Shown here: positions 10,029-40,101 of the stretch, piece after piece | How the letters are laid out: each line of letters begins with the position of its first letter | How positions within the stretch are numbered: position 1 is the first letter of the stretch | Source of the DNA: Blastococcus tunisiensis | Lineage (GTDB): Bacteria > Actinomycetota > Actinomycetes > Mycobacteriales > Geodermatophilaceae | Length of the DNA stretch: 64,000 nt | Assembly: GCF_900112815.1 (NCBI RefSeq) | Contig: NZ_FOND01000002.1 | Span: 1 to 64,000, forward strand | Reading direction: 5' to 3' | Program-made: the position numbers and the translations under genes | The notes under the pieces: generated by a model | What the model was told of the DNA's origin: nothing | What the model saw: the letters and a program-made list of their open reading frames with translations, nothing else | Database searches by the model: none

Positions 10029-10078
10029 TGCATTGCCGCCTAGGTGACAACCACGCACAGGGGAAGGAGGGCGAGTCG

Positions 10079-11551: not shown

Positions 11552-11677
11552 TCATCTCCACGAGTGGCGCGGACCTGGGACCATGGAACGCATGATGCCC
11601 CTGTCCGACGTGCGTTGTTGCTGCCCGGCCCCGTGCCCGACCGCCCACGCGACCCCGCGCCGGTCAGGAGACTCCCG

Positions 11678-16277: not shown

Positions 16278-16988
16278 TCAGACACTGGATCCGGCATCGA
16301 CGGTCACGGTGCTCCCGGTGATCCCGGCCGCCTCGGGAGCGAGCAGGTTCGCCACGGCGGCCGCGACCTCATCGGTGGTGGCGAACCGGCCCAGCGGGCT
16401 GCGCCGGCGGACGCGCTCCATGTTGTCGGAGCCGAGCACGGAGGTCATGTCGGTCTCCAGGAAGCCGGGCGCCACGGCGTTGACGGTCACCCCGCGGGGC
16501 CCCAGGTCGCGGGACAGCGAGCGGGTGAAGCCCTCCAGCCCGGCCTTGGCGGCCGCGTAGACGGACAGGCCGCGGAAGCCCGTCCGGCCGACGATCGAGG
16601 AGACGTTGACGATGCGCCCGCGCCCGGCCGACAGCATCGGGCGGCAGAGGTACTTGGTGAGCAGGATCGGGGAGAGCAGATCGAGCTCGATGACGCTGCG
16701 GATCTGGCTGTTGTGCATCGTCGGCAGCAGCCCGTCGAGGCCGCTCGCGGCGTTGTTGACCAGCCCGTAGGGCCGTGGCTGCACCGCCAGCACCTGCTTG
16801 GCGACCGCCGGGAGGCCGTCGATGTCCTGCAGGTCGGCCCGGACGTGCGTGTAGGACCCGCCGATCTCGGACGGGTCCACCTCGCGCCGGGACAACCCCA
16901 CGACCGTGTAGCCGTCCTTGACCAGCCGTAGCGCGATCGCGCGCCCCAGACCGCCACTGGTCCCGGTCACCACCACGGCGTCGCTCAT
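16278..16988 (-). CDS. SDR-family oxidoreductase, FabG-like
   Basis: 236-residue short-chain dehydrogenase. Cofactor loop TGTSGGLG (residues 8-15), NNAAS, and catalytic Ser-Tyr-Lys (SSIVGR...SVYAAAKAG) are present, as is the GFLETDM segment after the active site. Its length and the PG-T motif resemble 3-oxoacyl-ACP reductases, which reduce an ACP-bound keto group with NADPH. It overlaps the ligase upstream by 4 bases and sits next to a carrier protein, which supports an ACP-linked substrate rather than general metabolism. Confidence 0.85.
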   Translation of the reverse strand: MSDAVVVTGTSGGLGRAIALRLVKDGYTVVGLSRREVDPSEIGGSYTHVRADLQDIDGLPAVAKQVLAVQPRPYGLVNNAASGLDGLLPTMHNSQIRSVIELDLLSPILLTKYLCRPMLSAGRGRIVNVSSIVGRTGFRGLSVYAAAKAGLEGFTRSLSRDLGPRGVTVNAVAPGFLETDMTSVLGSDNMERVRRRSPLGRFATTDEVAAAVANLLAPEAAGITGSTVTVDAGSSV

Positions 16989-18301
16989 CGCCGGCCTGCC
17001 TTTCCTGCGGACGTCACGGCCATCCGGTCGACGACACGGACCACGGCGGGGACGTGCGTCGCGGGAAGCCGTGCTGCCAGGTCCTGGCTCAGCCGTTTCG
17101 GCAGGTCGGCCCGGTCGACCCCGGGTGCGGCGGTCACCTGCGCGACCAGCAGCCAGCCGCTGAAGGGGTTGCGGCGAGGGGTGACCACCGCGTCGACGAC
17201 GTCGGGATGGGCGCGCAGCGCAGCCTCCACCTGTTCGGGGGCGACCATCGCGCCGGCCACGTTCACCATGCCCGAGGCCCGGCCGAGGAAACGGACCCGG
17301 TCACCGGTCACCTCCACGAGGTCACCGGTGCTGACGAACCCGTCGGGTCCGCCGCCGGAGACGTCGGGGGCGTGCACGTGCAGGACGCCGTCGCGGACCT
17401 CCAGGCGGATGCCGCGCGGGGCCTCCTCGAGGTACGACCGGGGGAAGCCTTCCCGGCCGTCGTGCACGGAGAAGGCCGCGCCCGTCTCCGTGGACGCGAA
17501 GACGTGGGTGACCCGGGCGCCGGGGAACGCCTGGGCGAGCGCGTCCAGCAGACCCTGGTCGGCGATCTCGCCGCCCAGGGTGACCTGCTGCAGCGGGAGA
17601 CTGGTCTGCTCGCCGCTCTGCAGGATCTGCCGCCAGATCGTCGGAGTGGCCGACAGCGAGTCCACGGCGTGCGCGCTGAGCCGGCGCAGCCGGGCGGGCA
17701 GCGAGTCGAGGGCCAGGGGATCGACCAGCACGTCACCGCCCAGCACCGCCTGCAGGAGGACCTGGAGCCCGGCCATGCGCGTGGGCTCGTACAGCAGGCC
17801 CCAGCGTCGGGGAGCGCCGGACCTGCCGGCCATCGGCGCCGGCAGCACCGTGGTCCGCGTCAGGGAGGCCAGGGTGTGCTGGACCGCTTTCGGTTCGCCG
17901 GTGGTGCCGGACGTGTGCAGCACCCACCGGGTCGGGAGGCCGCGGGGGCCCCCGTCGCCGGTGGCCGGCGCGTCGGTGGTGGGCGCGTCGGTGGTGGGCG
18001 CGTCGGTGGTGGGCGCGGTAGCGGTCACCGAGTCGTCGAGGATGACGGCGTCCGGATCCTCGGCCGGGGCCAGGTCGGCTCCCCGGAGGTCGACGCGGGC
18101 GGCCCACCCTTCGAGGGCCAGGACGGCTGCGGCCACCGTCCGCGCCCGCGGCGCCCGGAGCACGACCACCCCTCCGGGGGGCACCGAGCGGCGGAGCCCG
18201 AAGACGTCCCCGACGAGGTCCCGGTACCGGACCTGACCGGCCACGTCCCCCGGCTCCTCGTCGAGTACGGCGGGTTCCAGCGGCTCAGCCCCGGGGGTCA
18301 T
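16985..18301 (-). CDS. AMP-dependent acyl/aryl ligase (ANL family)
   Basis: 438 residues, short for the ANL family (usually 500-560); the N-terminal subdomain is reduced. Adenylation motifs are present: LHTSGTTGEPKAVQHT (P-loop, about residue 130), the FASTETGAAFS A5-type motif (about 270), STGDLVEV and LGRASGMVNVAGAMV, and a C-terminal TSAGKAGRR where the catalytic Lys is expected. It should form an acyl-adenylate and load it onto the carrier protein encoded just upstream (17-bp overlap). A Thr/Asp/Ala/Pro linker (about residues 95-115) comes from a 15-bp triple repeat. The acid it activates is unknown. Confidence 0.8.
   Translation of the reverse strand: MTPGAEPLEPAVLDEEPGDVAGQVRYRDLVGDVFGLRRSVPPGGVVVLRAPRARTVAAAVLALEGWAARVDLRGADLAPAEDPDAVILDDSVTATAPTTDAPTTDAPTTDAPATGDGGPRGLPTRWVLHTSGTTGEPKAVQHTLASLTRTTVLPAPMAGRSGAPRRWGLLYEPTRMAGLQVLLQAVLGGDVLVDPLALDSLPARLRRLSAHAVDSLSATPTIWRQILQSGEQTSLPLQQVTLGGEIADQGLLDALAQAFPGARVTHVFASTETGAAFSVHDGREGFPRSYLEEAPRGIRLEVRDGVLHVHAPDVSGGGPDGFVSTGDLVEVTGDRVRFLGRASGMVNVAGAMVAPEQVEAALRAHPDVVDAVVTPRRNPFSGWLLVAQVTAAPGVDRADLPKRLSQDLAARLPATHVPAVVRVVDRMAVTSAGKAGRR
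17971..18015. repeat. Three perfect 15-bp tandem repeats inside the ligase gene
   Basis: CGTCGGTGGTGGGCG occurs three times head to tail and encodes three APTTD units in a linker between the N-terminal part and the P-loop. In-frame length means copy-number change would not break the gene. Confidence 0.9.
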
Positions 18302-18548
18302 GGCGGGCGTAGATGTCCACGAATTCGCCGAGCGTCTGCGGATACACCGGTTCGGTCATCTCGGTGAACGGGTCGTAACCGAGGGAGTCCTCGAGGCGGG
18401 TCACCAGCACGGCGAAGCCCAGGCTGTCGAGGCCGCTCTCCAGCAGGACGGTGTCGTCCCTCAGCGTCGGGACGTCCTTGCCCTCCTCGATCAGCAGGTC
18501 GGTGACCTGCCCCACTATCGCCTGCCGCACGTGGGTGTCCTCTGCCAT
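18285..18548 (-). CDS. Acyl carrier protein
   Basis: 87-residue stand-alone carrier starting at the ATG at 18548. The phosphopantetheine attachment motif is ESGLDSLGFAVLV with Ser about residue 43, preceded by acidic helix I (VTDLLIEEGKDVPTL) and followed by helix II/III as in ACPs. The frame is open upstream, but GAGAGGC upstream and normal ACP length decide the start. First gene of the operon ACP - ligase - SDR - acetyltransferase. It is not in a fatty-acid gene setting, so it likely carries a dedicated group for the neighbouring pathway. Confidence 0.88.
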   Translation of the reverse strand: MAEDTHVRQAIVGQVTDLLIEEGKDVPTLRDDTVLLESGLDSLGFAVLVTRLEDSLGYDPFTEMTEPVYPQTLGEFVDIYARHDPRG

Positions 18549-22682: not shown

Positions 22683-23888
22683 GTGCGTGCGTACCTGTCC
22701 GTGTGGCGGCTTCCCTCCGCCCCGGTCCTGCTCCTTGCCGGCTTCGCCGGACGCCTGCCGTCCGCCATGGTGCCGCTCGCGCTGCTGCTGATGGTGCAGC
22801 AGCAGACCGGTTCCTACGCCATCGCCGGGCTCGCGGCCGCCACCTTGGGGGTCGCGTCGGCCGTCATGGCCCCGGTCCTCGGGCGCCTGGCCGACCGTCG
22901 CGGGCCGCGCCCCATCCTCTTCGCGCAGGCGGTCGCCTACCCGCTGCTGCTGGCGCTGCTGGTCGCGGTCGCCCTCGGCGGCGCGCCCGACGCCGCCGTG
23001 ATCGCCGCCTCCGGACTGGCCGGCACGGCGACGCCGCTGGTCTCGGGCACGGTGCGGGCGCTGTGGTCGCGGGTCGACGTCCGGGTGCGCCCGACGGCGT
23101 ACGCGCTGGACGCGACCGTCACCGAGCTGGTCTTCGTCGCCGGCCCGTCGCTGGTGGCGGCGCTGGCCGTGTTCGTGTCGCCGGCCGCTGCCGTGGCCCT
23201 CGCCGGGGTGCTCGGCGTCGTCGGCGCCCTCGGCATCGCCATGTCGGCGGCGACCCGCGCCTACGAGCCGGTCGTCGGCGCCCGTGCGGGCCTGTTCTCC
23301 ACGGTGCTCACCCCGGGGATGCCGCGGCTGCTGCTCAGCGGCGCCGCGCTGATGCTGGGCTTCGGCGCGCTCGAGGTGGCCATCCCGGCGTTCGCCGACT
23401 CCACCGGCTCGCCCGGGCTCTCGGGCCTGCTCCTGGCGGTGTGGTCGCTGGGCTCGGTGATCGGCGGGTTGTGGTTCGGCGCGCGCGTGCTGAGCGCCTC
23501 GCTTCCGCGGCAGTACCGCCTGCTGCTGCTCGGCGTCACGATCGGCCTGGCACCGCTGGCCTGGATCTCCAGCCCCTGGGCGCTGGGCGTGCTGCTGTTC
23601 CTGGGCGGGACGGCGATCGCGCCGACGCTCACCGTGCAGAACACGCTGGTCGGCTCCATGGCGCCGGTGCACGCCACGACCGAGGCCTTCACCTGGCTGT
23701 CGACGATCACGGTCGGCGCCTCCGCGATCGGCGCGGCCCTGGGCGGCGCGCTCATCGAGAGGCCGGCCGGGGTGCCCGGGTCGCTGATGCTGGCCTGCGC
23801 GGGGGCGGCGGTCGCCGTCCTGGTGACGCTGCTGCCCGGCCGTCGTGCGTCGCTGGCGGCGGCCGCCCGGCAGCCCGTCGCGGCCTGA
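22683..23888 (+). CDS. MFS transporter
   Basis: 401 residues with 12 predicted membrane helices. VLGRLADRRGPRP between helices 2 and 3 is the MFS signature loop. GTG at 22683 has no clear ribosome-binding site and only about 37 bases separate it from the operator, so the mRNA may be leaderless or nearly so. The family includes drug and metabolite exporters; the C-terminal half (LSGLLLAVWSLGSVIGGLWFGAR described in parts) resembles efflux members often paired with CGNR regulators. Followed by a strong hairpin terminator. Confidence 0.82.
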   Translation: MRAYLSVWRLPSAPVLLLAGFAGRLPSAMVPLALLLMVQQQTGSYAIAGLAAATLGVASAVMAPVLGRLADRRGPRPILFAQAVAYPLLLALLVAVALGGAPDAAVIAASGLAGTATPLVSGTVRALWSRVDVRVRPTAYALDATVTELVFVAGPSLVAALAVFVSPAAAVALAGVLGVVGALGIAMSAATRAYEPVVGARAGLFSTVLTPGMPRLLLSGAALMLGFGALEVAIPAFADSTGSPGLSGLLLAVWSLGSVIGGLWFGARVLSASLPRQYRLLLLGVTIGLAPLAWISSPWALGVLLFLGGTAIAPTLTVQNTLVGSMAPVHATTEAFTWLSTITVGASAIGAALGGALIERPAGVPGSLMLACAGAAVAVLVTLLPGRRASLAAAARQPVAA

Positions 23889-23920
23889 CGCAGGGCGGCG
23901 CTGGCAGGTGTCGTCAGGGG

Positions 23921-23960
23921 CGGTCGGCCCTTGCCCACCCCGGTGGGCAAGGGCCGACCG
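23921..23960 (+). terminator. Strong hairpin terminator after the MFS gene
   Basis: Arms 23921-23939 and 23942-23960 are perfectly complementary over 19 bp, starting 33 bases after the MFS stop. No U-tract follows, as is usual in high-GC actinobacteria. Confidence 0.75.
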
Positions 23961-24021
23961 TGCGGGGACCGGTGGTCGGCGCAGGCCGTCGGCCCCTCGC
24001 GAACCGCCGTCCGGCCGCTGG

Positions 24022-24027
24022 TACTGT
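24022..24027 (+). promoter_or_regulatory. -10 element for tRNA-Ser(GCU)
   Basis: TACTGT 37 bases before the mature tRNA start fits the TANNNT actinobacterial -10. No convincing -35. Confidence 0.4.
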
Positions 24028-24063
24028 CACTCCTCGGTGGTTTCGAGGCGACTCGGACCCTTG

Positions 24064-24152
24064 GGAGGCTTCGCCTAGTCCGGTCTATGGCGCCGCACTG
24101 CTAATGCGGTTTGGGTTAATCCCCATCCCGGGTTCAAATCCCGGAGCCTCCG
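24064..24152 (+). tRNA. tRNA-Ser (anticodon GCU)
   Basis: Acceptor arms GGAGGCT (24064-24070) and AGCCTCC (24145-24151) pair fully, discriminator G at 24152. Anticodon stem CGCACTGCTAATGCG presents GCT. A long variable arm (GGGTTAATCCCC region) and the GTTCAAATC T-loop are typical of tRNA-Ser. CCA is not encoded. Confidence 0.95.
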
Positions 24153-24323
24153 CGCCTTTCTCCCGGCGCGCGTCGGTGCGCGCCGTCCGGCCGCGGCCGG
24201 TTCCTCCGATGCCCTGGCCGGTGACCGCCTGGCTCTCCGGGCGGCGGCGTGCGGCACGTGACGATCGTGTTGAGCCGGGCCCGGCGTCGTTTGGCTCCCG
24301 CGGGTCCCTGGCACCGCATCCCC

Positions 24324-25949
24324 ATGGATGCGACACCGACGACCAGGAACGGCCTCCGGCCGATGCGCTTCCTCGTCGCGTGCGGCGCCGTCATGACGCT
24401 CACCGCATGCGCCGGAGGGATCGACGGAACCGGGGCGCAGACCGACACCCGCTCTGCGGGCACCACCACCACGATGACGGACACGGCAGCCGGCGGGCGG
24501 AGCCTGTCAGCGCCGGACGCGCTCTCCCCGCTCGGCGAGCCGACGACCGATCCCGTCGAGTCCGACGGCTACCCGGGCACCGGTGAGCCGGCACTGCTCA
24601 CCGACGTCCGCGTGGCCGGCCAGGAGACCTTCGACCGGGTGGTCCTGGAGTTCGCCGACCAGGTGCCCGGGTACCGGGTGCAGTACGTCGAGCCGCCGAT
24701 CACCGCCGACGGATCCGGCCGGACCGTCGAGATCCCCGGCGAGGCGTACCTGCAGATCACCGCGCAGCCGGCGAGCGGGGTCGACCTCTCCGGCGACCAG
24801 CCCCGGCCGACGTACGACGGCCCGGCGCGCATCGATCCGCCCTACGGCGAGGTCATCACCGAGGCGGTGCGCACCGGGGACTTCGAGGGCGTGCTGACCT
24901 GGACGGTCGGGCTCGAGGAGCAGCTGCCGTACGGCGTGGTGACGCTGCAGGACCCACCGCGGCTCGTCGTCGACGTCCGGCACCAGGCCGACGGCGGGGA
25001 CGGCGGCTCCGGCGAGGGCATCGAGCCCGTGGGGCCGGGAGCTACCGATGACGTGTCCGCGGACGGCTCGGGCGAGCCCGTCCTCGTCACCGACGTCCGG
25101 CTCGGGGCGCACGACGGCTTCGACCGCATCGTCTTCGAGGTCGCCGGCGAGGGCGAAGCCGGCTGGCAGGCCGGCTACGTGCAGGACCCGACGGCCCAGG
25201 GCTCCGGCGAGCCGATCGACGTGGCCGGTGACGCCACGCTCGAGATCACGCTGACCAACGTCGCGCTGCCCGGCGACGCCCCTGAGGGCGTGCAGCCCTG
25301 GGACCAGCAGGAGCGGCTGGCCATCCGCGACGGCCAGGTCATCGAGGAGCTGATCGTCGACGGCCTCTTCGAGGGCCGGTACGCCTTCTACGCCGGGCTG
25401 ACCGGGCAGCTGCCGTTCGCGGTCGAGCGGTTCGAGGATCCGCAGCGGATCGTCGTCGACGTGCAGACCGAGCGCCCCGAGGACGTCGTCCTGAGCGAGA
25501 CCTGCACCAGCCCGGCCGGCTTCAGCGTCGGCTACCCGTCGGACTGGGCGGTCAACTCCGGCGAGACCGTGCCGTCGTGCAGCCGGTTCGCGCCGGCCAA
25601 CTTCAACGTGCCGGAGGCCACCGGTGCCCGGATAGCCGCGACCGCCTTCTCGATCGAACCGGTCGCCTTCGACCGGGTCACCCAGGAGCGCCCCGGTGAG
25701 ATGTCGCGCGAGCAGCTGACCGTGGACGGGCGGGACGCCGTCCGCATCGAGCGCGAGACGCAGGACGGCCTGTACCCGGCCGGGACGCCGATCACCAGCT
25801 ACGCCATCCCGCTGGAGGACGGCGAGAGCGGCCCGCGCACCCTGGTCGCCGACACGGTGGGCCTGCCCGCCTTCGACTACCAGCGCAACGTGGCGGTGCT
25901 CGACGCGCAGGTCGAGTCGCTCGACCTCGACGCCGAACCGGAGGGCTGA
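24324..25949 (+). CDS. Lipoprotein with two tandem AMIN-like domains
   Basis: 541 residues if started at 24324 (alternative ATG 24363). A hydrophobic stretch ends in the lipobox LTAC, so the Cys would be lipidated and the protein held outside the membrane. After a Thr/Ser-rich linker come two homologous units: EPALLTDVRVAGQETFDRVV ... PPRLVVDV and EPVLVTDVRLGAHDGFDRIV ... PQRIVVDV, each about 130 residues and each with a G-L-EEQLP/TGQLP segment. These look like AMIN-type beta domains that bind cell-wall material. A third C-terminal region (about 400-541) begins at CTSPAGFSVGYPSDW. Stands between two tRNA genes. Confidence 0.75.
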   Translation: MDATPTTRNGLRPMRFLVACGAVMTLTACAGGIDGTGAQTDTRSAGTTTTMTDTAAGGRSLSAPDALSPLGEPTTDPVESDGYPGTGEPALLTDVRVAGQETFDRVVLEFADQVPGYRVQYVEPPITADGSGRTVEIPGEAYLQITAQPASGVDLSGDQPRPTYDGPARIDPPYGEVITEAVRTGDFEGVLTWTVGLEEQLPYGVVTLQDPPRLVVDVRHQADGGDGGSGEGIEPVGPGATDDVSADGSGEPVLVTDVRLGAHDGFDRIVFEVAGEGEAGWQAGYVQDPTAQGSGEPIDVAGDATLEITLTNVALPGDAPEGVQPWDQQERLAIRDGQVIEELIVDGLFEGRYAFYAGLTGQLPFAVERFEDPQRIVVDVQTERPEDVVLSETCTSPAGFSVGYPSDWAVNSGETVPSCSRFAPANFNVPEATGARIAATAFSIEPVAFDRVTQERPGEMSREQLTVDGRDAVRIERETQDGLYPAGTPITSYAIPLEDGESGPRTLVADTVGLPAFDYQRNVAVLDAQVESLDLDAEPEG

Positions 25950-25997
25950 CGCCGGCAGCCATGGCGGACCCCCGTCCAGGACCCGATCCGTGCCCGC

Positions 25998-26003
25998 TAC
26001 ACT
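25998..26003 (+). promoter_or_regulatory. -10 element for tRNA-Arg(ACG)
   Basis: TACACT, a TANNNT match, 26 bases before the tRNA start. -35 not clear. Confidence 0.4.
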
Positions 26004-26029
26004 GGTGCCAGCGCCGATTTCCGGCTGCT

Positions 26030-26102
26030 GCACCCGTAGCTCAACGGATAGAGCATCTGACTACGGATCAGAAGGTTAGGGGTTCGAATCCCTTCGGGTG
26101 CA
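26030..26102 (+). tRNA. tRNA-Arg (anticodon ACG)
   Basis: Acceptor arms GCACCCG (26030-26036) and CGGGTGC (26095-26101), discriminator A. Anticodon stem TCTGA/TCAGA encloses CTACGGA, giving ACG at 26063-26065. This is the tRNA whose A34 is changed to inosine by TadA, encoded at 59860 in the same window. Confidence 0.96.
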
Positions 26103-26120
26103 CGTCTGGTTGAGACACCG

Positions 26121-26158
26121 CTCTGCCGCGCCGCCCCGACGGGGGAGGCGCGGCAGAG
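26121..26158. terminator. Hairpin terminator after tRNA-Arg
   Basis: CTCTGCCGCGCC (26121-26132) pairs perfectly with 26147-26158 across a 14-base loop. It lies between tRNA-Arg and the convergent methyltransferase. A 20-bp direct repeat with core CAGAGTCGTCTCCGAG follows at about 26153-26190. Confidence 0.65.
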
Positions 26159-26221
26159 TCGTCTCCGAGGCAGCAGAGTCGTCTCCGAGACGCCGGGGCC
26201 GTCCGACTGCGGCCGCGCCGC

Positions 26222-27070
26222 TCACCCGGGCACCTTCTCCAGCCACAGCGATCCGCCGCGCACTCCCTGGTTCTCCGGAGCCACCAGGTCCGGGTGCTCG
26301 GTCGCCAGCCAGTCCCCGAAGAGCACGATCCGGAAGCGGGAGTTGTAGGCGAGGAAGGCGTGCACGAAGTACACCTCCGTCCAGTCCCGGCCTTCGCGCA
26401 GCCACTCGTCGGGATACTCGAACGGCCACAGGACGTCGTGGATGTGCACGATCACGCCGTCCGGCAGGGCGGGGAGGATGCGCAGGAGCAGCCAGAGCAC
26501 GTCCGACCCGGCCTTGACGACGTGCGTCGAGTCGATGAAGAAGACGTCGCCCGGACGGAGCTGCGCGACCAGGGACGCCATGTCGACGTCCTGCAGCGGC
26601 TGCTCCAGCAACGTCAGCCGGTCGGTGTCCCCCGGCCGGAGCCGGGAGCGCAGCCGGTCGGCGTAGGGCTCGACGCAGGTGATCCGGAGATCCGGCAGGT
26701 CCTGCTCGGCCACATCGAGCGCCAGCGCCGTCGAGTAGCCCGACCCGATCTCGACCAGTCGCTCCGGCCGGTGGTGCAGCAGCATTCCGCGTAGCATCGA
26801 CGCGTCGGCCGCTCCGAACATGGAGTTGTCCGGGGTCCACCGGCCCGTACTCGGCCGGCTCAGGTCCAGCTCCTGCGCGAGCCGCATCTGCTCGGCCTCC
26901 CGCAGGTCCACCGCGGACGTCGGCGCCTGCCTGGTCGCGATGGCCCGCTCGCGATCCGCCGGCGACGTGACCGAGCTGAAGAAGTGCCCTGGCGCGTAGC
27001 GGGGCGGCCGGACCAGGTCCCGGGTGACGGCCCGGACGGCGCGGACGACGTGGCGGCCGAGGGAGGGCAT
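26222..27070 (-). CDS. Class I SAM-dependent methyltransferase
   Basis: 282 residues from the ATG at 27070. The SAM-binding motif I is LVEIGSGYSTALALDVA (about residue 100), followed by ITCVEPYADRL (acidic end of strand 2) and DVFFIDSTHVV, which resembles the Methyltransf_24 or CmcI-like group where His-Asp near strand 4 (VHIHDVLWPFEYP) bind metal. A basic N-terminus (GRHVVRAVRAVTRDLVRPPRY) is unlike small O-methyltransferases. Divergent from the A-T-TE synthetase gene 275 bp away, so it may modify the synthetase product or a glycan; not proven. Confidence 0.78.
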   Translation of the reverse strand: MPSLGRHVVRAVRAVTRDLVRPPRYAPGHFFSSVTSPADRERAIATRQAPTSAVDLREAEQMRLAQELDLSRPSTGRWTPDNSMFGAADASMLRGMLLHHRPERLVEIGSGYSTALALDVAEQDLPDLRITCVEPYADRLRSRLRPGDTDRLTLLEQPLQDVDMASLVAQLRPGDVFFIDSTHVVKAGSDVLWLLLRILPALPDGVIVHIHDVLWPFEYPDEWLREGRDWTEVYFVHAFLAYNSRFRIVLFGDWLATEHPDLVAPENQGVRGGSLWLEKVPG

Positions 27071-27304
27071 CGCCGCACAGTAGGGGCGCGCTCGATCGCC
27101 GGAAAGGGCCGGCGGCGCTCCCCGCAGCGGTGCCTGGCGGCACGATCGCGGTCTCGTCGTGCTCGCGGCCGGCGCGGTCCGACGACGGAGCGGGGGGTTC
27201 CACGGCACGTTCACGCGCCTGACGTGGGGTGTCACCCCACCGGGTGCCCGAGCGGGAAAGGTTCCGCCGGATCGTCGGCTGCGCCTACCCTCGCCCCGGG
27301 ACTG

Positions 27305-27325
27305 CGGAAGAGGACCGATCTTCCG
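27305..27325 (+). promoter_or_regulatory. Leader hairpin before the A-T-TE synthetase
   Basis: CGGAAGA (27305-27311) and TCTTCCG (27319-27325) form a 7-bp inverted repeat 20 bases ahead of the ATG at 27345. No good Shine-Dalgarno lies between it and the start, so the hairpin may influence translation, or the site may be an operator. Confidence 0.4.
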
Positions 27326-27344
27326 GGATTGTGGGGTTGCTGCC

Positions 27345-29888
27345 ATGCCGACGCTGCTTCCGCTCGAGGAGGATCCGGCCGTCGCCGACCTTGTGGACCG
27401 GCTGATCACCGTGGCGGCCGCACAGCCCGAGGCGATCGCCCTGGGGGATGACGGTCGGCAGCTCACCTTCGGAGAGCTCCTCGTCGAGGCGGCGGCCATC
27501 ACAGCGGAGCTCACGGAGCGGAACCCCAACCGCCGTCCCGTCGCGGTGCTCCTCAGCCACGGGGTCGATGCGGTGGTGGCCGCGGTGGCCGTCGTCGGCT
27601 CGGGAGCTCCGCTCGTCGTCCTGGACTCGACGACACCCGCCCCCCGGCTGCGCCACTACGTCGAGGCCGCCGGGACGACGATCTGCCTCACCGACCCGGA
27701 GCACCGCACCGTGGCGGAGGAGCTCTGCAACACCGTGCTCACGGGGAGACGGGGTGCAACGGGCGGTGACCCGGTCGACGCCGCCGGCGTGCTCCGCGCG
27801 GTGCGGACGGACCCCCATCGGCCGCTGGTCGTCGTCTTCACCTCCGGTTCCACCGGCCGGCCGAAGGGTGTGGCCAACGGCGCCCGCGCCGTGCTGCACG
27901 ACGCCTACACCAACGCTGTGGCCACAGGCTGCTACGGGCCGGGGGACGTCGTCGCCAACCTGCTGCCCATGGCGTTCGCCGCGGGGATCGGGCTGACGCT
28001 CACCGGGCTGGCCGCCGGGGCGACACAGCAGCTCTTCGACCCGCGCGCCCGGCCGGTCGGGGAGCTGCCGCAGTGGTTGCGGCAGGTCGGCGCCACCATC
28101 CTCGTGGCCAGCCCGGGCATTCTGCGCGGGCTGGTCGCCTCGCAGCCGCCGGGCGCGACCCTCGACGGGCTGACCCGCGTCACCGTGGCCGGGGAGACCG
28201 TGCACGCCGCCGAGCTGGCCGCCATCCGTGGCCTGCTGGGGCCTTCGGTCGAGATCTGGAACCGGTACGGCTCCACCGAGACAGGGTTGATCTCCGAGTA
28301 CATCCTGCGGGCCGGCGACCCGCTCCCGGTGGGCCCGACGCCCGTCGGCCGGCCCGTGAGCGGGATGCAGGTGCGGGTCCGGGACGAGCACGGGACGGAC
28401 CACGAGGTCGGCACGGGGCGGCTGGTCGTGACCTCGCGCTGGCTGACGCAGGGGTACCTGGGCAACCCGGAGGCCACGTCCGCGGTCTTCACCGACCTCG
28501 AGGACGGTCGCAGGACGTTCCTCACCAACGACTCCGCGACCATCGACGACGCCGGCCAGATCACCCTGCTGGGAAGGACCGACCACAGCGTCAAGGTGCG
28601 TGGCCACCTGGTCGAGCCGGGGGAGATCGACGCCGTCCTGTTCGCCCAGCCGGAGATCCGGGAGGCGGTGACGGTGGGTGTCACGTCGGAGGGGACCGGC
28701 CGCGTGCGGCTGATCTCCTACGTCGTCCCGGCCGACGCCCGCATCGAGGCCGCGTCGGTGCGCCGCGTGGTCCGTGAGCAGCTCCCGGTCTTCATGGTGC
28801 CCGAGCAGGTCGTCTTCCTCACCGCGCTGCCGCGCACCGAGCGGGGCAAGCTCGACCGCGCCGCCCTGCCCGCGGCGCCGCCGCCCTCCCGAGGTGACCA
28901 GCCGCCCCGGTCGGACTGGGAGCGCGTCGTGGCCGCGATGTTCGCGCGGGTCCTGGGGCTGGACTCGGTGGGGGTCGACGGCGACTTCTTCGAGCTCGGC
29001 GGTGACTCGCTGGCGGCCGAGGAGCTCCTCGCCGCCGTCGTCCAGGAGCTGGATGTCCCGACGGAGGTTGCCACGACGAAGCTGCTCGCGGAGGCGTCGA
29101 CGCCGCAGGCCTTCGCCGAGGCCGTCCGCCGCCAGCGGCGACCCGCCCACCCCACCCTCGTCCGGCTGCGGGGCGCTGGTAGCCGCACGCCGCTGTTCTG
29201 CGTCGGTGGCGCGGGCGCGGTCGCGGTGGGTTTCCGGCCGCTGGCCCTCCGGCTCGGCCCGGACCAGCCCGTGTACGCCGTCCAGGCCAGTGGCCTCGAG
29301 ACCCGCGGCCCGGTGGACTGGACGGTCGAGGCGATGGCGGCCCGCCACCTGGAGACGCTGCGCGCGGTCCAGCCGCACGGCCCCTACCGGCTCGCCGGGC
29401 ACTCACTGGGTGCCCTGATCGCCCTCGACATGGCGCACTCCCTCACCGCCGCCGGCGAGGAGGTGGAGCTGGTCGCCGTGCTGGACTCCTATCCGCCCGA
29501 CCCGGCGATGTCGCCATCGGCCTTCGACGGGAGCGTCGTGCGGAAGCTGAAGCGCCTGCTCGCGGTGCTGCTGGTCGGTGTGCTGCCGAGCGGCCGCAGC
29601 GACTACTCCCGGTTCCACGTGCACGGGGTCTTCGTCGGCCACCGGCACCGGGGGCGGCCGTGGGCGGGGCGCACGCTCGTCGTCGTGGCCCAGGACGACG
29701 GGCACGCCGCACCGCGGGCCCGGTGGGAGGGGCATCTCACCGGCTCCTGGGACGTGGTGCACGTCCCGGGCGACCACGTCAGCGTGCTGCACGAGCCCTA
29801 CGTCGGGGCGCTTGCGGACGCGCTGTCGGCGGAGTTGCAGTCCCTCGACGTCCGGCCCGCGGCAGAGGCCGCCCACCCCGGGGCCTGA
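27345..29888 (+). CDS. Stand-alone NRPS-like synthetase, domains A-T-TE
   Basis: 847 residues. Adenylation domain about 20-510: A3 VFTSGSTGRPKG (about 163), A5 NRYGSTETG (about 306), A8 RGHLVEPGEID, A10 PRTERGKLD. Thiolation domain about 520-600 with FFELGGDSL, Ser555. Type I thioesterase about 620-830 with GHSLGA, Ser687, and a C-terminal His in PGDHVSVL. There is no condensation domain. Known A-T-TE enzymes (atromentin-type, EchA) activate and dimerise aryl-pyruvates. At the A4 region the sequence is LPMAFAAGIG where amino-acid-activating enzymes have F-D; loss of that Asp fits an acid without alpha-amino group. Substrate inference only. Confidence 0.85.
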   Translation: MPTLLPLEEDPAVADLVDRLITVAAAQPEAIALGDDGRQLTFGELLVEAAAITAELTERNPNRRPVAVLLSHGVDAVVAAVAVVGSGAPLVVLDSTTPAPRLRHYVEAAGTTICLTDPEHRTVAEELCNTVLTGRRGATGGDPVDAAGVLRAVRTDPHRPLVVVFTSGSTGRPKGVANGARAVLHDAYTNAVATGCYGPGDVVANLLPMAFAAGIGLTLTGLAAGATQQLFDPRARPVGELPQWLRQVGATILVASPGILRGLVASQPPGATLDGLTRVTVAGETVHAAELAAIRGLLGPSVEIWNRYGSTETGLISEYILRAGDPLPVGPTPVGRPVSGMQVRVRDEHGTDHEVGTGRLVVTSRWLTQGYLGNPEATSAVFTDLEDGRRTFLTNDSATIDDAGQITLLGRTDHSVKVRGHLVEPGEIDAVLFAQPEIREAVTVGVTSEGTGRVRLISYVVPADARIEAASVRRVVREQLPVFMVPEQVVFLTALPRTERGKLDRAALPAAPPPSRGDQPPRSDWERVVAAMFARVLGLDSVGVDGDFFELGGDSLAAEELLAAVVQELDVPTEVATTKLLAEASTPQAFAEAVRRQRRPAHPTLVRLRGAGSRTPLFCVGGAGAVAVGFRPLALRLGPDQPVYAVQASGLETRGPVDWTVEAMAARHLETLRAVQPHGPYRLAGHSLGALIALDMAHSLTAAGEEVELVAVLDSYPPDPAMSPSAFDGSVVRKLKRLLAVLLVGVLPSGRSDYSRFHVHGVFVGHRHRGRPWAGRTLVVVAQDDGHAAPRARWEGHLTGSWDVVHVPGDHVSVLHEPYVGALADALSAELQSLDVRPAAEAAHPGA

Positions 29889-29920: not shown

Positions 29921-32170
29921 TCACTCGGTCGCGACCATCTCCGGCACCCCGCCCGGGGTCCGGGGCCCGGTCGCCTGGACCGGGATCGAGGGCGCAGCGG
30001 CGGGTTCGACGTCGTGCGCCATGGTCGGTAGCCAGCCCAACCAGCGCGGCAGGTACCAGTTCGCCTCGCCGAGCAGCCGCATGACCGCCGGCAGCAGCAC
30101 CGCCCGGACCAGGGTGGCGTCGAGCAGCACCGCGAGCGCCAGCCCCAGGCCGATCTGCTTCATCGACGTCATGGACAGCGCGACGAAGCACAGGAAGACG
30201 AACACCATGATCATCGCGGCGCTCGTCACCGTCCCGGCCGAGCGGGTGATCCCGGAGGCGATCGCCTGCGAGGTGCTCTCGCCCCGGTCCCGGGCCTCGC
30301 GGATCCGGCTGAGGATGAACACGTGGTAGTCCATCGACAGCCCGAACAGGATCACGAACAGGAACAGCGGGATCCAGTTCACGATGGCGCCGGTGGCCTC
30401 CAGCCCGATCAGGTCGCCCCCCCACCCGTGCTGGAAGACCAGCACCAGGGCGCCGTAGGCGGCCGCCACCGACAGCAGGTTGAGGGTGAGCGCCGTGAGC
30501 GCCACCACCACCGAGCGGAACGACACCAGCAGCAGCAGGAACGCGAGCACCAGCACGAAGCCGAACACCCACGGCGTCCGCTCGGCCACGAGATCCTCGA
30601 AGGCGATGGACAGCGCGGTGTTGCCCGCCGTCACGGCCGTGACGCCGTCGACCGCACCGATCGTCGTGGGGACGACGTCCTCGGCTAGCGTGCCCAGCGC
30701 ATCGCGGGAGGCCTGCTCCTCGCCGTCCCCGGCCAGGGGCACCGAGACGACGGCGACGGTGCCGCCCTCGTTGGTCTCGACGGTGATCGGCTCGAACATC
30801 ACGCCGGTGGCCAGGGCCTCGGTGCGCAGGTCCGCGATCGCGTCCTGCACGTCCGGGGCGGTGACGTCGTCGGCCGCCACGACGACCTCGGCCGGGTCGG
30901 AGCCGCCGGGGAAGGCCTCGGCGATCCGCTCGTAGGTGGCGATCACCGGCAGGTCCTGGGGCAGGTCGGCGATGCCCTCGTTGCGCAGGGTGAGCCCGAA
31001 CGCCGGGACGGCGAGCCCGATCAGCAGCCCGCCGGACACGACGGCCGCGACCAGCGGGCGGCGCAGCACGACGCCGAGCACGGCGGGCCAGAACCGGCCC
31101 TGCCCCGGTGCGCGACGACGGCGGCCGGTGAACGGGACCCGCCCCTTCTCGATCCGGTCGCCGAGCCAGGACATCAGCGCGGGCAGCACGGTGAGCGAGC
31201 CGACGACGGACGTGGCGACGACGAGGATCGTGCCGACCGCGACGCCGGTGAACACGGAGAACCCGGTGAGGAACATGCCGGCCATCGCGACGATCACGGT
31301 GATGCCGGAGATCAGCACCGACCGGCCGGACGTGGCGGCGGCGACGTCGAGGGCGTCGGCGGCCGACCGGCCGCGAGCCCGTTCCTCGCGCTCCCGCTTG
31401 AGGTAGAAGAGCGAGTAGTCGACGCCGACGGCCAGGCCGATGAGCAGCATGACGGTCTGGGTGGTGCCGTCGACGTGCCAGATCTGGCTGGCGAAGCTGA
31501 GCAGGCCCAGCGCCCCGACGAACGCGGTCAGCGCGAACACCAGGGGCAGGACGGCGGCGACGAGCGCGCCGAAGGTGAGCATCAGCACCGCGAGGATGAT
31601 CGGGATCGACAGGTACTCGGCGCGCTGGAAGTCCGCGTCCAGGGCTGCGTCGAGGGCCACCTCCGCGCTGGTGCCGCCGAACTGCTCGACCCGGACGTCG
31701 TCGTGCCGGTCGGCGACGGTGGCCACGGCGACCTGGATCGGCCCGATCCTGTCCCCGGCGGTGTCGGGGGACCCGCGGATGTCGAAGGTCACCAGCGCCG
31801 AGCGCCCGTCCGCCGAGACCAGCGGGGCGCCGTCCAGCGGGCTGGCGACGTTCGCGACCTCCGGGGTGTCCTCCAGGACGGCGACCAGGTCGGTGAGCGC
31901 GGCGGTGGCGGTGGCGTCGCCGACGTCGTCCGTGCGCTGGACGAGCACCATCTCCGACGCCGGTTCCTCCCACCCGTTCTCGTCGAGGATCCGCTGGGCC
32001 TGGGCCGGTGCGCCGAGCAGCTGCTCCGAGCCGGTCAGCTCCCCCTGCGGGACGAGCTGACCGGCGAGGACGGCGAGCGCGACGAAGGCCAGCCAGCCGA
32101 ACACCGCCGTCTTCCGGTGTCGCGCGCTCCCACTCCCCGTGCGGGCCGCGAGATTGCTGGGTCTGGTCAT
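29921..32170 (-). CDS. MMPL-family RND transporter
   Basis: 749 residues from the ATG at 32170; the frame is open antisense across the next gene but that is chance. Two homologous halves, each with an extracytoplasmic domain and a bundle of membrane helices (about 12 in all). Proton-relay motifs GLAVGVDYSLFYLKRE and GLSMDYHVFILSRIRE are conserved, as in mycobacterial MmpL lipid exporters and other actinobacterial RND pumps. Likely exports a lipid, glycolipid or drug using the proton gradient. It converges on the synthetase gene (32-bp gap) and diverges from the penicillin-binding protein. Confidence 0.88.
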   Translation of the reverse strand: MTRPSNLAARTGSGSARHRKTAVFGWLAFVALAVLAGQLVPQGELTGSEQLLGAPAQAQRILDENGWEEPASEMVLVQRTDDVGDATATAALTDLVAVLEDTPEVANVASPLDGAPLVSADGRSALVTFDIRGSPDTAGDRIGPIQVAVATVADRHDDVRVEQFGGTSAEVALDAALDADFQRAEYLSIPIILAVLMLTFGALVAAVLPLVFALTAFVGALGLLSFASQIWHVDGTTQTVMLLIGLAVGVDYSLFYLKREREERARGRSAADALDVAAATSGRSVLISGITVIVAMAGMFLTGFSVFTGVAVGTILVVATSVVGSLTVLPALMSWLGDRIEKGRVPFTGRRRRAPGQGRFWPAVLGVVLRRPLVAAVVSGGLLIGLAVPAFGLTLRNEGIADLPQDLPVIATYERIAEAFPGGSDPAEVVVAADDVTAPDVQDAIADLRTEALATGVMFEPITVETNEGGTVAVVSVPLAGDGEEQASRDALGTLAEDVVPTTIGAVDGVTAVTAGNTALSIAFEDLVAERTPWVFGFVLVLAFLLLLVSFRSVVVALTALTLNLLSVAAAYGALVLVFQHGWGGDLIGLEATGAIVNWIPLFLFVILFGLSMDYHVFILSRIREARDRGESTSQAIASGITRSAGTVTSAAMIMVFVFLCFVALSMTSMKQIGLGLALAVLLDATLVRAVLLPAVMRLLGEANWYLPRWLGWLPTMAHDVEPAAAPSIPVQATGPRTPGGVPEMVATE

Positions 32171-32572: not shown

Positions 32573-35221
<2,649 letters not shown>

Positions 35222-35501: not shown

Positions 35502-36803
35502 CTACCCGACGCGGCGGAGGACGTCGGGGGAGAGCTGGTCGACCGCGGTGTGCCCGGTCAGTCCGAGCGTCAGGTCGAACTCGCCGATGACGTCGCTGAT
35601 CACCTGCCGCACGCCCTCCTCGCCGGCCAGTGCCAGCCCCCACGCGAACGGCCGGCCGAGCAGTACCGCCGTCGCCCCGAGGGCCACGGCCGTGAAGACG
35701 TCGGCGCCGCTGCGGACCCCGCTGTCCAGCAGCACCGGCGCGCGCCCGGCGACCGCCCCCAGCACCTCGGGCAGCGCGTCCAGCGCGGAGATCGACCGGT
35801 CGACCTGCCGGCCGCCGTGGGTGCTGACGACCAGCCCGTCGACGCCCTCGTCCAGGGCGCGGCGGGCGTCGTCGGGGTGCAGCACGCCCTTGAGCAGGAT
35901 CGGCAGCCGCGTCCTCGACCGCAGCCAGGCCAGGTCGTCCCAGGTGATGGAGGGCCGGGAGTAGATGCCGAGGAACGTCTCGACGGCGGCCCGGGGGAGC
36001 GGCGACTGCAGGTTGTCGCGGAACGAGCCGGGCCAGGCCTTCGCCATGCCGACGAGGGCCTTCACCGCGGCCGGCGTGGGCCGGGGCTGTGGCTGCTTCG
36101 GCCCGCCGGCCGCCACCTTCTCCTCGACCAGCCGGCGGAACACCGGGTCGGAGGTGTACTGCGCGATGCCCTTGCCCAGCGCGAACGGCAGGTGCCCGAG
36201 GTCGAGGTCGCGCGGCCGCCAGCCCAGCATCGTCGTGTCCAGCGTGACGACGACGGCGTCGCAGCCGGCCCGCTCGGCCCGGCCGACCAGGCTCTCGACC
36301 AGCTCGTCGGACGTCGACCAGTACAGCTGGAACCAGCGCGGCGCAGCATCGGGGCCGGAGCCCATCGCCGCGGCGCACTCCTCCATCGACACCGACGCCT
36401 GGTTGGAGAAGACCATCGGCACCCCGGTGGCGGCCGCGGCCCGGGCCACGGCGAGGTCGGCGTCGGCGTGCACCAGCTCCAGCGCACCGACCGGCCCGAG
36501 CAGCAGGGGCGCCGGGAGGCGGCGGCCGAAGATCTCGACGGAGGTGTCCCGGCTGCTCACGTCCCGCAGCAACCGCGGCACCACGGCCCAGCGGTCGAAG
36601 GCCGCCCGGTTGGCCCGCTGGGTGACCTCATCGCCGGCGCCACCGGCGACGTAGGCGTAGGCCCGCGCGTTCAGCGCCTTCTTCGCCGCCGCCTGCAGCT
36701 TCCGCGCCGCGACCGGCACCCGGGGGAGGTGGCCGTAGACCCCGGCCCGGTAGACCTCGTTCTGCCGGCGACGGCCGGCTCCTGCCTCATCCACGGCCTG
36801 CAC
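35502..36803 (-). CDS. FMN-dependent alpha-hydroxyacid dehydrogenase (LldD-like)
   Basis: 433 residues if started at the GTG at 36803 (a GTG at 36794 is equally possible; neither has a clear ribosome-binding site). TIM-barrel flavoenzyme that oxidises L-lactate or a related 2-hydroxyacid. N-terminal NARAYAYVAGGAGDE, the PLLLGPVGALELVHADAD segment, LKGVLHPDDARRALDEGVDG and the active-site STHGGRQVDRSISALDALPEV followed by LLDSGVRSGADVFTAVALGA are diagnostic of the family and include the catalytic His and FMN-phosphate binding Arg/Gly. Stands alone. Confidence 0.9.
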   Translation of the reverse strand: MQAVDEAGAGRRRQNEVYRAGVYGHLPRVPVAARKLQAAAKKALNARAYAYVAGGAGDEVTQRANRAAFDRWAVVPRLLRDVSSRDTSVEIFGRRLPAPLLLGPVGALELVHADADLAVARAAAATGVPMVFSNQASVSMEECAAAMGSGPDAAPRWFQLYWSTSDELVESLVGRAERAGCDAVVVTLDTTMLGWRPRDLDLGHLPFALGKGIAQYTSDPVFRRLVEEKVAAGGPKQPQPRPTPAAVKALVGMAKAWPGSFRDNLQSPLPRAAVETFLGIYSRPSITWDDLAWLRSRTRLPILLKGVLHPDDARRALDEGVDGLVVSTHGGRQVDRSISALDALPEVLGAVAGRAPVLLDSGVRSGADVFTAVALGATAVLLGRPFAWGLALAGEEGVRQVISDVIGEFDLTLGLTGHTAVDQLSPDVLRRVG

Positions 36804-36948
36804 GCTAGTGACCCCGCTCTCACCCGCCACGGCGAGGGCGGCGCGCCCTCCGGGCAAGAGCTGCCAGTAATCGCCGACACGCCGCACCGACACGCCCAAC
36901 TGGCCGGTAACGGGCTGACAACGACGTGTCACATCGGACATCATTCGG

Positions 36949-38580: not shown

Positions 38581-40101
38581 ATGATCGGGAACGGGCCGGT
38601 CGTGCCACCGTTCCTCCAGCGGAGCAGCGTCGTCGTCCCGACCATCGGTCGGCCCTCGCTCGACGTGCTCCTCGACGCCCTGGCCGCCGCCCCCGGGCCG
38701 CGGCCGGCCGAGCTGATCCTCGTCGACGACCGGCCGACCGGGGAGCCGCTGCGGCCCGAGCGCCCCGGCCTCCCGCCGGTCCGCGTGGTGCGCACCGGAG
38801 GGGGCGGTCCGGCGCGGGCCCGCAACCTGGGCTGGCGCACCGCCCGCACCGAGTGGATCGCCTTCCTGGACGACGACGTGGTGCCCGACGCCGACTGGTA
38901 CCAGCGGCTCGAGGCGGATCTGGCCGACCTGCCGGCCGACGTCGCCGGCAGCCAGGGCCGGGTCCGGGTGCCGCTGCCCGAGGACCGGCGCCCCACCGAC
39001 TGGGAGCGCGGGACCGCGGGGCTGGCCACGAGCAGCTGGATCACCGCCGACGTGGCCTACCGGCGGGCCGCGCTGGCCGCGGTCGGCGGGTTCGACGAGC
39101 GGTTCCCCCGCGCGTTCCGCGAGGACTCCGACCTCGCGCTGCGGATCATGGACACCGGCGCGCGGCTGGTCCGCGGGCAGCGCTGGATCACCCACCCGGT
39201 GCGGCCGGCCGACCGCTGGATCAGCGTCCGCGTGCAGGCCGGCAACGCCGACGACGTGCTGATGCGCCGGCTGCACGGCCGGCACTGGCGGGACCGGGCC
39301 GACGCCGCGCTCGGCCGCCGGCCCCGGCACACCGCCGTCACCGCGGCCGCCCTGGCCGCGCTCGGGTTCGCCGCTGCCCGCCGGCCCCGGGCCGCGGCAC
39401 TGGCCGCCGCCGGGTGGCTGGCCGGGACGGCGGAGTTCGCCTGGGCCCGCATCGCCCCCGGCCCGCGCGACCGCGCCGAGGTGACGACGATGCTGGCGAC
39501 GAGCGCGCTCATCCCCCCGCTGGCCACCTGGCACTGGCTGCGCGGTGTCGTGCAGCACGGAGGGGTCCGCCGCTGGCGGGGCCTGCCCGACCTGGTGCTG
39601 TTCGACCGCGACGGCACGCTGGTGCACGACTTCCCCTACAACGGCGACCCCGACTGGGTGCGCCCGGTGGACGGGGCCAGGGAGGCGCTCGACCGGCTGC
39701 GGGCGCGGGGCGTGCGGGTCGGCGTGGTGAGCAACCAGTCCGGCGTGGCCCGGGGCCTGATCACCGGCGAGCAGGTGGAGGCCTGCATGGCCCGGCTCGA
39801 GGAGCTGCTCGGACCGTTCGACACGGTCCGGGTCTGCCCGCACGGCCCGGACGACGGCTGCGACTGCCGCAAGCCCGCCCCCGGCATGGTCAAGGCGGCC
39901 TGCGCCGAGCTGGACGTCGACCCGGCCCGCTGCGTCGTCATCGGGGACATCGGCGCCGACGTCGAGGCCGCCGCCGCGGCCGGGGCGGCCGGGATCCTGG
40001 TGCCGACGCCGGTGACCCGGAAGGCCGAGGTCGACGCCGCCGCGCACGTCGCGGGCAGCCTGACCGCCGCGGTGGACGACGTCCTGGACGGTGCCTGGTG
40101 A
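38581..40101 (+). CDS. Fusion of GT2 glycosyltransferase and GmhB-type heptose-bisphosphate phosphatase
   Basis: 506 residues. N-terminal GT2 domain (about 12-250): SVVVPTIGRPSLDVL, ARNLGW, FLDDDVVPDADW (metal site) and FREDSDLALRIMD. A membrane-like Ala-rich region (about 255-330) links to a HAD domain (about 335-500) with LFDRDGTLVHDF (nucleophile Asp), SNQSGVARG and the zinc-binding CPHGPDDGCDCRKPAPGM typical of GmhB, which removes the 7-phosphate of heptose-1,7-bisphosphate. Both halves look intact. First gene of the operon; the next starts at its stop (GTGA). Confidence 0.9.
   Translation: MIGNGPVVPPFLQRSSVVVPTIGRPSLDVLLDALAAAPGPRPAELILVDDRPTGEPLRPERPGLPPVRVVRTGGGGPARARNLGWRTARTEWIAFLDDDVVPDADWYQRLEADLADLPADVAGSQGRVRVPLPEDRRPTDWERGTAGLATSSWITADVAYRRAALAAVGGFDERFPRAFREDSDLALRIMDTGARLVRGQRWITHPVRPADRWISVRVQAGNADDVLMRRLHGRHWRDRADAALGRRPRHTAVTAAALAALGFAAARRPRAAALAAAGWLAGTAEFAWARIAPGPRDRAEVTTMLATSALIPPLATWHWLRGVVQHGGVRRWRGLPDLVLFDRDGTLVHDFPYNGDPDWVRPVDGAREALDRLRARGVRVGVVSNQSGVARGLITGEQVEACMARLEELLGPFDTVRVCPHGPDDGCDCRKPAPGMVKAACAELDVDPARCVVIGDIGADVEAAAAAGAAGILVPTPVTRKAEVDAAAHVAGSLTAAVDDVLDGAW

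What the first reader, a model, noticed from the sequence alone, without database searches (positions are those of the whole stretch)
27345..29888. A-T-TE synthetase that has lost the amino-group Asp
Only adenylation, thiolation and thioesterase domains are present, as in enzymes that join two aryl-pyruvates (atromentin, polyporic acid). Where amino-acid-activating domains have F-D, this one reads FAAGIG. I infer an alpha-keto or other acid substrate. A methyltransferase diverges from it and an MMPL exporter follows, possibly tailoring and export.
Basis: partly seen in the sequence, partly recalled or inferred. Interest (0 to 1): 0.65.

Follow-up and report, generated by a model that had tools for sequence, protein, structure and literature searches.

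The report
Free-standing synthetase for non-amino acids
This gene encodes a compact three-domain enzyme, from a little-studied family in what appear to be actinobacteria, that probably activates an organic acid without an amino group and then releases or transfers it; what it makes is unknown.

Summary
ORF 27345-29888 (+) encodes 847 aa with A, T and TE domains and no condensation domain. The amino-group Asp position is Ala, with no acidic residue in the nine pocket positions read. The A5 Pro is Ser.

The Asp was not lost here: the protein belongs to an A-T-TE clade (59 rows, support 100/100) apart from 11 amino-acid-type NRPS domains. 54 of 59 rows lack the Asp; none has the Pro. The five rows with Asp are close relatives of this protein, and all five carry Lys/Arg four residues on, so Asp looks regained as a charge pair. 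Aryl-pyruvate is not supported: code AAGVTARLI+K has a clade-conserved Arg, hinting at an acidic substrate. Methyltransferase and MMPL genes are not co-conserved.

Elsewhere in the family, one subclade has an FMN alpha-hydroxyacid dehydrogenase next door in 8 of 8 loci, and two genomes fuse A-T-TE to a Wzx-like flippase. Best reading: an enzyme activating a keto, hydroxy or plain acid, product unknown. Kinship with EchA/AtrA/RalA could not be tested.

The parts
27345..29888 (+). A-T-TE synthetase, 847 aa
   Evidence: translation and Pfam; homologues 67% and lower
27411..28850 (+). adenylation domain, residues 23-502 (A core plus C-terminal subdomain)
   Evidence: Pfam PF00501/PF13193; model mean pLDDT 87.5 over the whole protein; VIA-align Z 45.2, rmsd 2.6, 483 aligned to GrsA PheA 1amu_B
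27978..27980 (+). Ala212 at the GrsA Asp235 position
   Evidence: alignment with EntF FDVSVW and LgrA FD
28263..28265 (+). Arg307 at GrsA 322; kept in 10 of 10 members of the window clade
28272..28274 (+). Ser310 in place of the A5 Pro (YGSTE for YGPTE)
28926..29126 (+). carrier (T) domain, phosphopantetheine Ser555 in GGDSL
   Evidence: Pfam PF00550; Ser in 44 of 44 rows
29190..29822 (+). thioesterase domain, residues assigned as triad Ser687-Asp714-His811
   Evidence: Pfam PF00975; Ser and Asp 41/41, His 40/41 among rows that reach them
26222..27070 (-). divergent Methyltransf_24 protein, 282 aa; neighbour, not shown to be part of the system
   Evidence: Pfam; not found in relatives
29921..32170 (-). 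MMPL-family transporter, convergent; neighbour, not shown to be part of the system
   Evidence: Pfam
35502..36893 (-). FMN-dependent alpha-hydroxyacid dehydrogenase family protein, 5.6 kb away; a homologue is also present at this site in G025, which lacks the A-T-TE
   Evidence: Pfam FMN_dh; NCBIfam matches below their cut-offs

Best explanation
The protein belongs to a distinct family, presumed actinobacterial, of free-standing A-T-TE (NRPS-like) enzymes. Its A domain adenylates a carboxylic acid that has no alpha-amino group (alpha-keto, alpha-hydroxy or plain acid); in the window's clade the acid probably carries a second negative charge that a conserved Arg (R307) can hold. The acyl group is loaded on Ser555 of the T domain and passed to Ser687 of the TE, which releases it as an ester, a dimer or the free acid, or transfers it to an alcohol acceptor. 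Shown here by sequence: domain order, intact catalytic residues, absence of the Asp and of the A5 Pro, the conserved Arg, separate grouping of the family. Inferred: substrate class, loading, release chemistry.
For: No acidic residue in the nine aligned code positions. Position 235 is not Asp in 54 of 59 family rows, and the A5 Pro is absent in 59 of 59, against Asp in 11 of 11 and Pro in 8 of 11 canonical NRPS rows. PMC11253843 (passages) ties both changes to keto acids: I306 and M415 in StsA, and LgrA P483M/P483A gaining a small activity on a keto acid; for hydroxy acids it names small residues at 235 (Ala in engineered TycA, Gly in EnSynA1). The family separates from NRPS and other ANL enzymes with 100/100 support. 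In the f20 subclade whose code begins with Ile, 8 of 8 loci have an FMN alpha-hydroxyacid dehydrogenase directly downstream, an enzyme class that converts hydroxy to keto acids (established knowledge). R307 is kept in 10 of 10 window-clade rows. Catalytic residues are conserved.
Against: Five of the eight same-family members of the window clade do carry Asp at 235, so the position alone cannot fix the substrate class. The A5 Pro is also missing in 3 of 11 canonical rows that keep Asp. No substrate-supplying gene is seen to be conserved beside the window clade: the FMN dehydrogenase near the window gene also sits at this site without an A-T-TE. The Arg-to-acid inference is by analogy only. Three of the eight f1 clade members lack a TE in cis: two end soon after the carrier domain and one has the TE as a separate downstream frame. 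The best solved-structure sequence matches are amino-acid NRPS.
Confidence: 0.62

Rival explanations
1. Aryl-pyruvate coupler like EchA, DatA, RalA or atromentin synthetase: two aryl-pyruvates are joined by the TE to a quinone or furanone (the first reader's reading; a special case of the best explanation, so the odds overlap).
For: Same A-T-TE layout, no Asp, no A5 Pro, no partner gene shared by all loci examined. DatA makes polyporic acid from phenylpyruvate (PMC9379647, passages).
Against: Code AAGVTARLI does not begin with Val and has Arg at 322. Pfam of the six neighbouring genes tested shows nothing like the dehydratase and epoxide-hydrolase-like partners of the dat/ech clusters. Grouping with these enzymes was not testable.
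Confidence: 0.12
2. Surface-glycan decorator: the activated acid is transferred by the TE to a lipid-linked or exported polysaccharide (also compatible with the best explanation, so the odds overlap).
For: In G464 and G260 the A-T-TE is fused behind a Wzx-like flippase (N-terminal 425 aa of L103_7 match L121_12 at E 3e-71 and L110_14 at 1.5e-35; L110_14 lies just above the PF01943 cut-off, 28.8 against 28.2). 13 of 40 A-T-TE neighbourhoods, in 13 of 32 genomes, hold two or more glycan-gene homologues, against 1 of 33 control stretches of the same genomes; the 13 stays 13 when the seed genes themselves are not counted. The window gene lies between two polysaccharide gene blocks, 11.7 kb upstream (ending with a Wzz gene at 15690) and 8.7 kb downstream (GT2, GT9 and GT4 genes from 38581).
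Against: The association lies in other subclades: within 10 kb the window has 0 and the seven other window-clade loci counted (G091, two of G092, G086, G087, G384, G192) have 0; only G045 has three. Five of nine seeds came from the test loci; with the one working seed from outside them (GT4) the contrast is weak, 7 of 40 against 2 of 33 with at least one hit. Loci are not all independent. I recall no such transfer by an A-T-TE.
Confidence: 0.3
3. Ordinary amino-acid-activating A-T-TE in which the amino group is held by another residue.
For: Nearest solved relatives are amino-acid NRPS. Close relatives have Asp back.
Against: No Asp or Glu in the code, Pro absent in 59 of 59 family rows, and the Asp-bearing relatives all pair it with Lys/Arg at 239 (5 of 5, against 0 Lys/Arg in the other 54 rows; 5 of those 54 have His).
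Confidence: 0.15

Closest known systems
EchA / DatA polyporic acid synthetases (Streptomyces), RalA, and fungal AtrA/TdiA/HapA-type quinone synthetases
   Same: A-T-TE layout without condensation domain; Asp235 replaced (published for that group; not compared by sequence here)
   Different: Published keto-acid codes start with Val as a rule (PMC10316625, PMC5238615; passages and table); here Ala first and Arg at 322; dat/ech-like partner genes not among the neighbours tested; phylogenetic relation untested
EntF terminal NRPS module
   Same: Best whole-protein Foldseek match (E 6.2e-59, 28% identity) and homologous A-T-TE order
   Different: EntF has a condensation domain (established knowledge), Asp235 and the A5 Pro; its A domain falls in a separate supported group
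StsA keto-acid A domain (cereulide-type synthetase)
   Same: Loss of both the Asp and the A5 Pro (PMC11253843)
   Different: StsA has Ile and Met at these places and sits in an A-KR-T module; here Ala and Ser, and no ketoreductase domain

Membership tests
NRPS-like A-T-TE enzymes (layout) | AMP-binding, carrier and thioesterase domains in this order, no condensation domain | tested here: met
   Pfam
NRPS-like A-T-TE enzymes (layout) | intact phosphopantetheine Ser and TE triad | tested here: met
   Ser 44/44; TE Ser and Asp 41/41, His 40/41 among rows that reach them
alpha-keto-acid-activating A domains | Asp235 replaced by a hydrophobic or small residue | tested here: met
   Ala212
alpha-keto-acid-activating A domains | A5 Pro replaced | tested here: met
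   Ser310; note that 3 of 11 canonical rows also lack it
alpha-keto-acid-activating A domains | adenylates a keto acid | not testable with these tools
   needs an enzyme assay
aryl-pyruvate quinone/furanone synthetases (EchA, AtrA, RalA) | Val at the first code position | tested here: not met
   Ala, criterion from PMC10316625 (passage)
aryl-pyruvate quinone/furanone synthetases (EchA, AtrA, RalA) | phylogenetic grouping with EchA/AtrA/RalA | not testable with these tools
   no such sequence obtained; four accession look-ups for a Ralstonia megaplasmid failed
amino-acid-specific NRPS A domains | Asp at GrsA 235 | tested here: not met
   11 of 11 canonical rows have it
amino-acid-specific NRPS A domains | groups with such domains in a tree | tested here: not met
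   rows were gathered by similarity to this protein and only 11 canonical rows were used, which favours separation

The most novel reading that the evidence does not exclude
An undescribed family, presumed actinobacterial, of one-piece acyl-activating and acyl-transferring enzymes, some fused to a Wzx-type flippase, that put non-amino acids (keto, hydroxy or dicarboxylic acids) on lipid-linked surface glycans; in the window's clade an Arg-lined pocket selects an acidic acid, and one branch rebuilt Asp235 together with a basic partner at 239.
Probability: 0.25. Interest if true: 0.75.

Novelty: new variant of a known kind. Interest (0 to 1): 0.5.

Why it matters
As far as I recall, A-T-TE enzymes known to work without a condensation domain are few and mostly fungal. 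A bacterial family with several pocket types, one tied to an alpha-hydroxyacid dehydrogenase and one to polysaccharide export, would give test cases for substrate codes without Asp235, and perhaps a new way of decorating bacterial surface glycans. The paired change Asp235 with Lys/Arg239 is a caution for code readers: Asp at this position need not mean an amino-acid substrate.

Tried and rejected
Phylogeny with EchA/AtrA/RalA: no sequence could be obtained; accession look-ups NC_003296, AL646053, NC_017575 and NC_014310 found no record, so the question was left open. The scan of the named genome collection with this protein gave one distant ANL locus (30% over residues 156-508) of 125 pattern matches; genomes near the window's own may be left out there. 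Plasmid hits: of six opened, four were annotated NRPS or amino-acid-adenylating genes and two (H4, H24) had no annotated gene at the match; none was shown to be a free-standing A-T-TE. Their A domains served as canonical controls.

Tailoring and export by the methyltransferase and MMPL gene: rejected as unsupported; itself has no positive control, the control being the window's own genome. FMN dehydrogenase at 35502-36893 as partner: rejected for the window, since a homologue stands at the site in G025 without an A-T-TE. Acyl-CoA dehydrogenase beside the g9 loci L069 and L073 as a partner: matches were below the NCBIfam cut-offs shown, not pursued. The TE's best solved match, 7crn (E 3e-22), is named only 'Non-ribosomal peptide synthetase 4'; a paper search for it found nothing. 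Pocket distances could not be measured because model coordinates were not readable in the script box (listing); the VIA-align rows cover mainly the A domain and do not discriminate substrate class.

Nine paper searches were run. Apart they listed 8 of 9, 9 of 9, 20 of 20, 20 of 74, 15 of 19, 15 of 2,380, 10 of 38 and 8 of 14 papers; no title or abstract start described this family. Five papers were opened, passages only: PMC10316625, PMC9047271, PMC11253843, PMC9379647, PMC5238615. Rows and choices: L026 (G022) was set with the canonical NRPS rows because of its Asp and Pro; the separate TE frame of G091 was left out of the tree; alignment A1 used 44 of the 59 family rows in the tree. In one search three of nine glycan seeds gave no profile and a stale table was reread for them; the rerun gave the same counts.

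Full report
What is there. The frame 27345-29888 (+) encodes 847 residues. Pfam finds an AMP-binding domain, its C-terminal subdomain, one carrier domain and one thioesterase, and nothing else at E 0.001. The start matches the nearest homologue, in genome G045, 67% identical over residues 1-837. The gene's G+C is 0.746 and its third-position G+C 0.938, the lowest of the seven genes compared (the others 0.943-0.972), so it is near its neighbours. AlphaFold with 44 family rows gives mean pLDDT 87.5; the A domain overlays GrsA PheA at Z 45.2, rmsd 2.6 over 483 residues, and the whole protein matches EntF best.

The missing Asp. FAAGIG stands opposite the Asp-bearing motif of LgrA and EntF. With EntF as anchor the nine readable code positions are A-A-G-V-T-A-R-L-I, and the tenth, the Lys near the C-terminus, is K502, invariant in 44 rows. 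There is no acidic residue among them. The A5 motif reads YGSTE instead of YGPTE. A 2024 review (PMC11253843; [quoted passage not shown] it also says that hydroxy-acid domains carry a small residue at the Asp position.

It is a family trait. Matches were found in 18 of 112 genomes of the same family at E 1e-60 (the own genome and one NRPS-like case, G022, counted) and 48 of 394 of the same class at E 1e-80 (eight of the matches listed lie in open frames above 2,000 aa and look like multi-module NRPS). In the phylum sample, 5 of 396 genomes hit at E 1e-90: the own genome, three of the same order and one of the same class. In a tree of 80 A domains the 59 A-T-TE rows form one group (100/100), apart from 11 canonical NRPS rows and 10 other ANL enzymes. 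Rows were gathered by similarity to this protein, which favours separation, so this is support rather than proof. Among the 59 rows the Asp position is A in 36, I in 8, S in 5, D in 5, G in 3 and H in 2, and the A5 position is S in 40, A in 18 and T in 1; in the 11 canonical rows it is D in all 11, and P in 8, I in 2, Q in 1. So the change belongs to the whole family.

The Asp comes back. The window protein's clade has eight rows from its own family and two from family f36. Five of the eight (L011, L012, L013, L014, L028) have Asp; they form one branch (96/64, not fully supported) inside rows with Ala, Ser or His. All five have Lys or Arg at GrsA 239, four residues on; none of the other 54 rows has Lys or Arg there, though 5 have His. 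I read this as one origin of an internal charge pair rather than a return to amino acids. It is one event, so the covariation does not count five times. All ten rows keep Arg at GrsA 322. From memory, aspartate-activating NRPS domains have basic residues at 278 and 322, so I infer a substrate with a second negative charge; no call tested this.

Catalytic parts. The carrier Ser is present in 44 of 44 aligned rows, TE Ser and Asp in 41 of 41 rows that reach them, and His in 40 of 41. In G086 and G087 the relative ends soon after the carrier domain, and in G091 one copy has its TE as a separate frame downstream.

Neighbours in the window. The methyltransferase gene (26222-27070, minus) diverges from the synthetase and the MMPL gene (29921-32170, minus) converges on it. 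The methyltransferase was found only in the window's own genome among 16 of the genus at E 1e-20, and in 0 of 8 other genomes at E 1e-10, seven of which carry a window-clade A-T-TE. The MMPL gene was found in 2 of 16 at E 1e-100; in G025 it stands right after the same MFS gene with no A-T-TE. In G045 the 67% homologue stands after that MFS gene, and its 20-kb stretch holds no homologue of either neighbour. Tailoring and export are therefore unsupported. The A-T-TE itself was found in 1 of the 16 genomes of the genus. Polysaccharide genes flank at a distance: GT2 genes, a sugar transferase and a Wzz gene between 989 and 15690, and GT2, GT9 and GT4 genes between 38581 and 46476.

Neighbours elsewhere. 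In f20 genomes, the type whose code begins with Ile (ISNV) has an FMN-dependent alpha-hydroxyacid dehydrogenase just downstream in 8 of 8 loci (identity 84% or more to the query dehydrogenase). No other f20 locus gave a hit, but for most of those only about 1.5 kb of flank was searched. More distant homologues (36-44%) occur near A-T-TE genes in the window, G045 and G046, and in G025 without one. That enzyme class makes keto acids from hydroxy acids, so a keto or hydroxy acid is likely for the f20 subclade. In G464 and G260 one open frame carries a Wzx-like flippase followed by A-T-TE. Within 20-kb stretches, two or more glycan-gene homologues (profiles from GT2, GT4, flippase and GH16 seeds worked) occur in 13 of 40 A-T-TE loci, in 13 of 32 genomes, and in 1 of 33 stretches about half a contig away in the same genomes. 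Five of the nine seeds came from the test loci and three seeds gave no profile. Leaving out the seed genes keeps 13 of 40; using only the outside GT4 seed gives 7 of 40 against 2 of 33 with at least one hit. So the excess is partly built in; its concentration in a few subclades is clear. The window stretch itself has none within 10 kb by this count.

Comparison. The layout is that of polyporic acid and atromentin synthetases. DatA makes polyporic acid from phenylpyruvate and sits with an NAD-dependent dehydratase and a limonene-epoxide-hydrolase-like protein (PMC9379647, passages). The neighbouring genes tested in the window show no such partner. Published keto-acid codes start with Val, or Gly in AulA (PMC5238615, table; PMC10316625, passages). 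The window code does not. Whether the family shares ancestry with EchA or RalA could not be tested.

Verdict. Activation of a non-amino acid is the best reading (0.62). Aryl-pyruvate coupling is one unlikely special case (0.12). A role in acylating surface glycans is possible from the wider family (0.3) but has no direct support in the window's clade; these odds overlap with the best explanation. Novelty: a new variant of a known kind; no description of the family appeared in the listings of eight paper searches, several of them cut short, which is weak evidence of absence.

Noticed in passing
16278-18548 (-): A carrier protein (87 aa, PP-binding E 6.7e-5), an AMP-binding ligase (438 aa) and an SDR reductase in overlapping order, a second acyl-activating set near polysaccharide genes.
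   Followed up: partly
L103 7948-11736 and L104 8855-12736 (G464, G260): One open frame joins a Wzx-like flippase of about 425 aa to an A-T-TE synthetase.
   Followed up: partly
L079, L080, L116-L120 and the L056 flank (f20 genomes): A-T-TE with Ile at the first code position next to an FMN alpha-hydroxyacid dehydrogenase in 8 of 8 loci; SnoaL-like genes lie nearby in L117 and L119.
   Followed up: partly
L011, L012, L013, L014, L028: Asp at GrsA 235 occurs only together with Lys or Arg at 239.
   Followed up: partly
L110, L111, L112 (G084, G064, G058): Two A-T-TE-like genes (about 870 and 960-990 aa) lie close together and divergent; in L110, the one tested by Pfam, the cluster has GH16, GT2 and hexapeptide-transferase genes.
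   Followed up: no
L082, L083 (G040, G041), L068 (G045) and window 22683-29888: The site after a conserved MFS gene holds A-T-TE genes of different subclades in different genomes, like a hotspot.
   Followed up: no
L084 (G046) 6151-13954: An FMN dehydrogenase gene lies between two A-T-TE genes.
   Followed up: no
32573-35221 (+): Penicillin-binding protein with a long C-terminal tail of Pro-Glu-Pro-Thr repeats.
   Followed up: no
38581-40101 (+): One frame joins a GT2 glycosyltransferase to a HAD hydrolase, followed by GT9 and GT4 genes, a heptose-type cluster by look.
   Followed up: no
4109-5359, 7099-8520, 8560-9885, 11678-12739, 12698-14119: Genes among the upstream polysaccharide genes without any Pfam match at E 0.001.
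   Followed up: no
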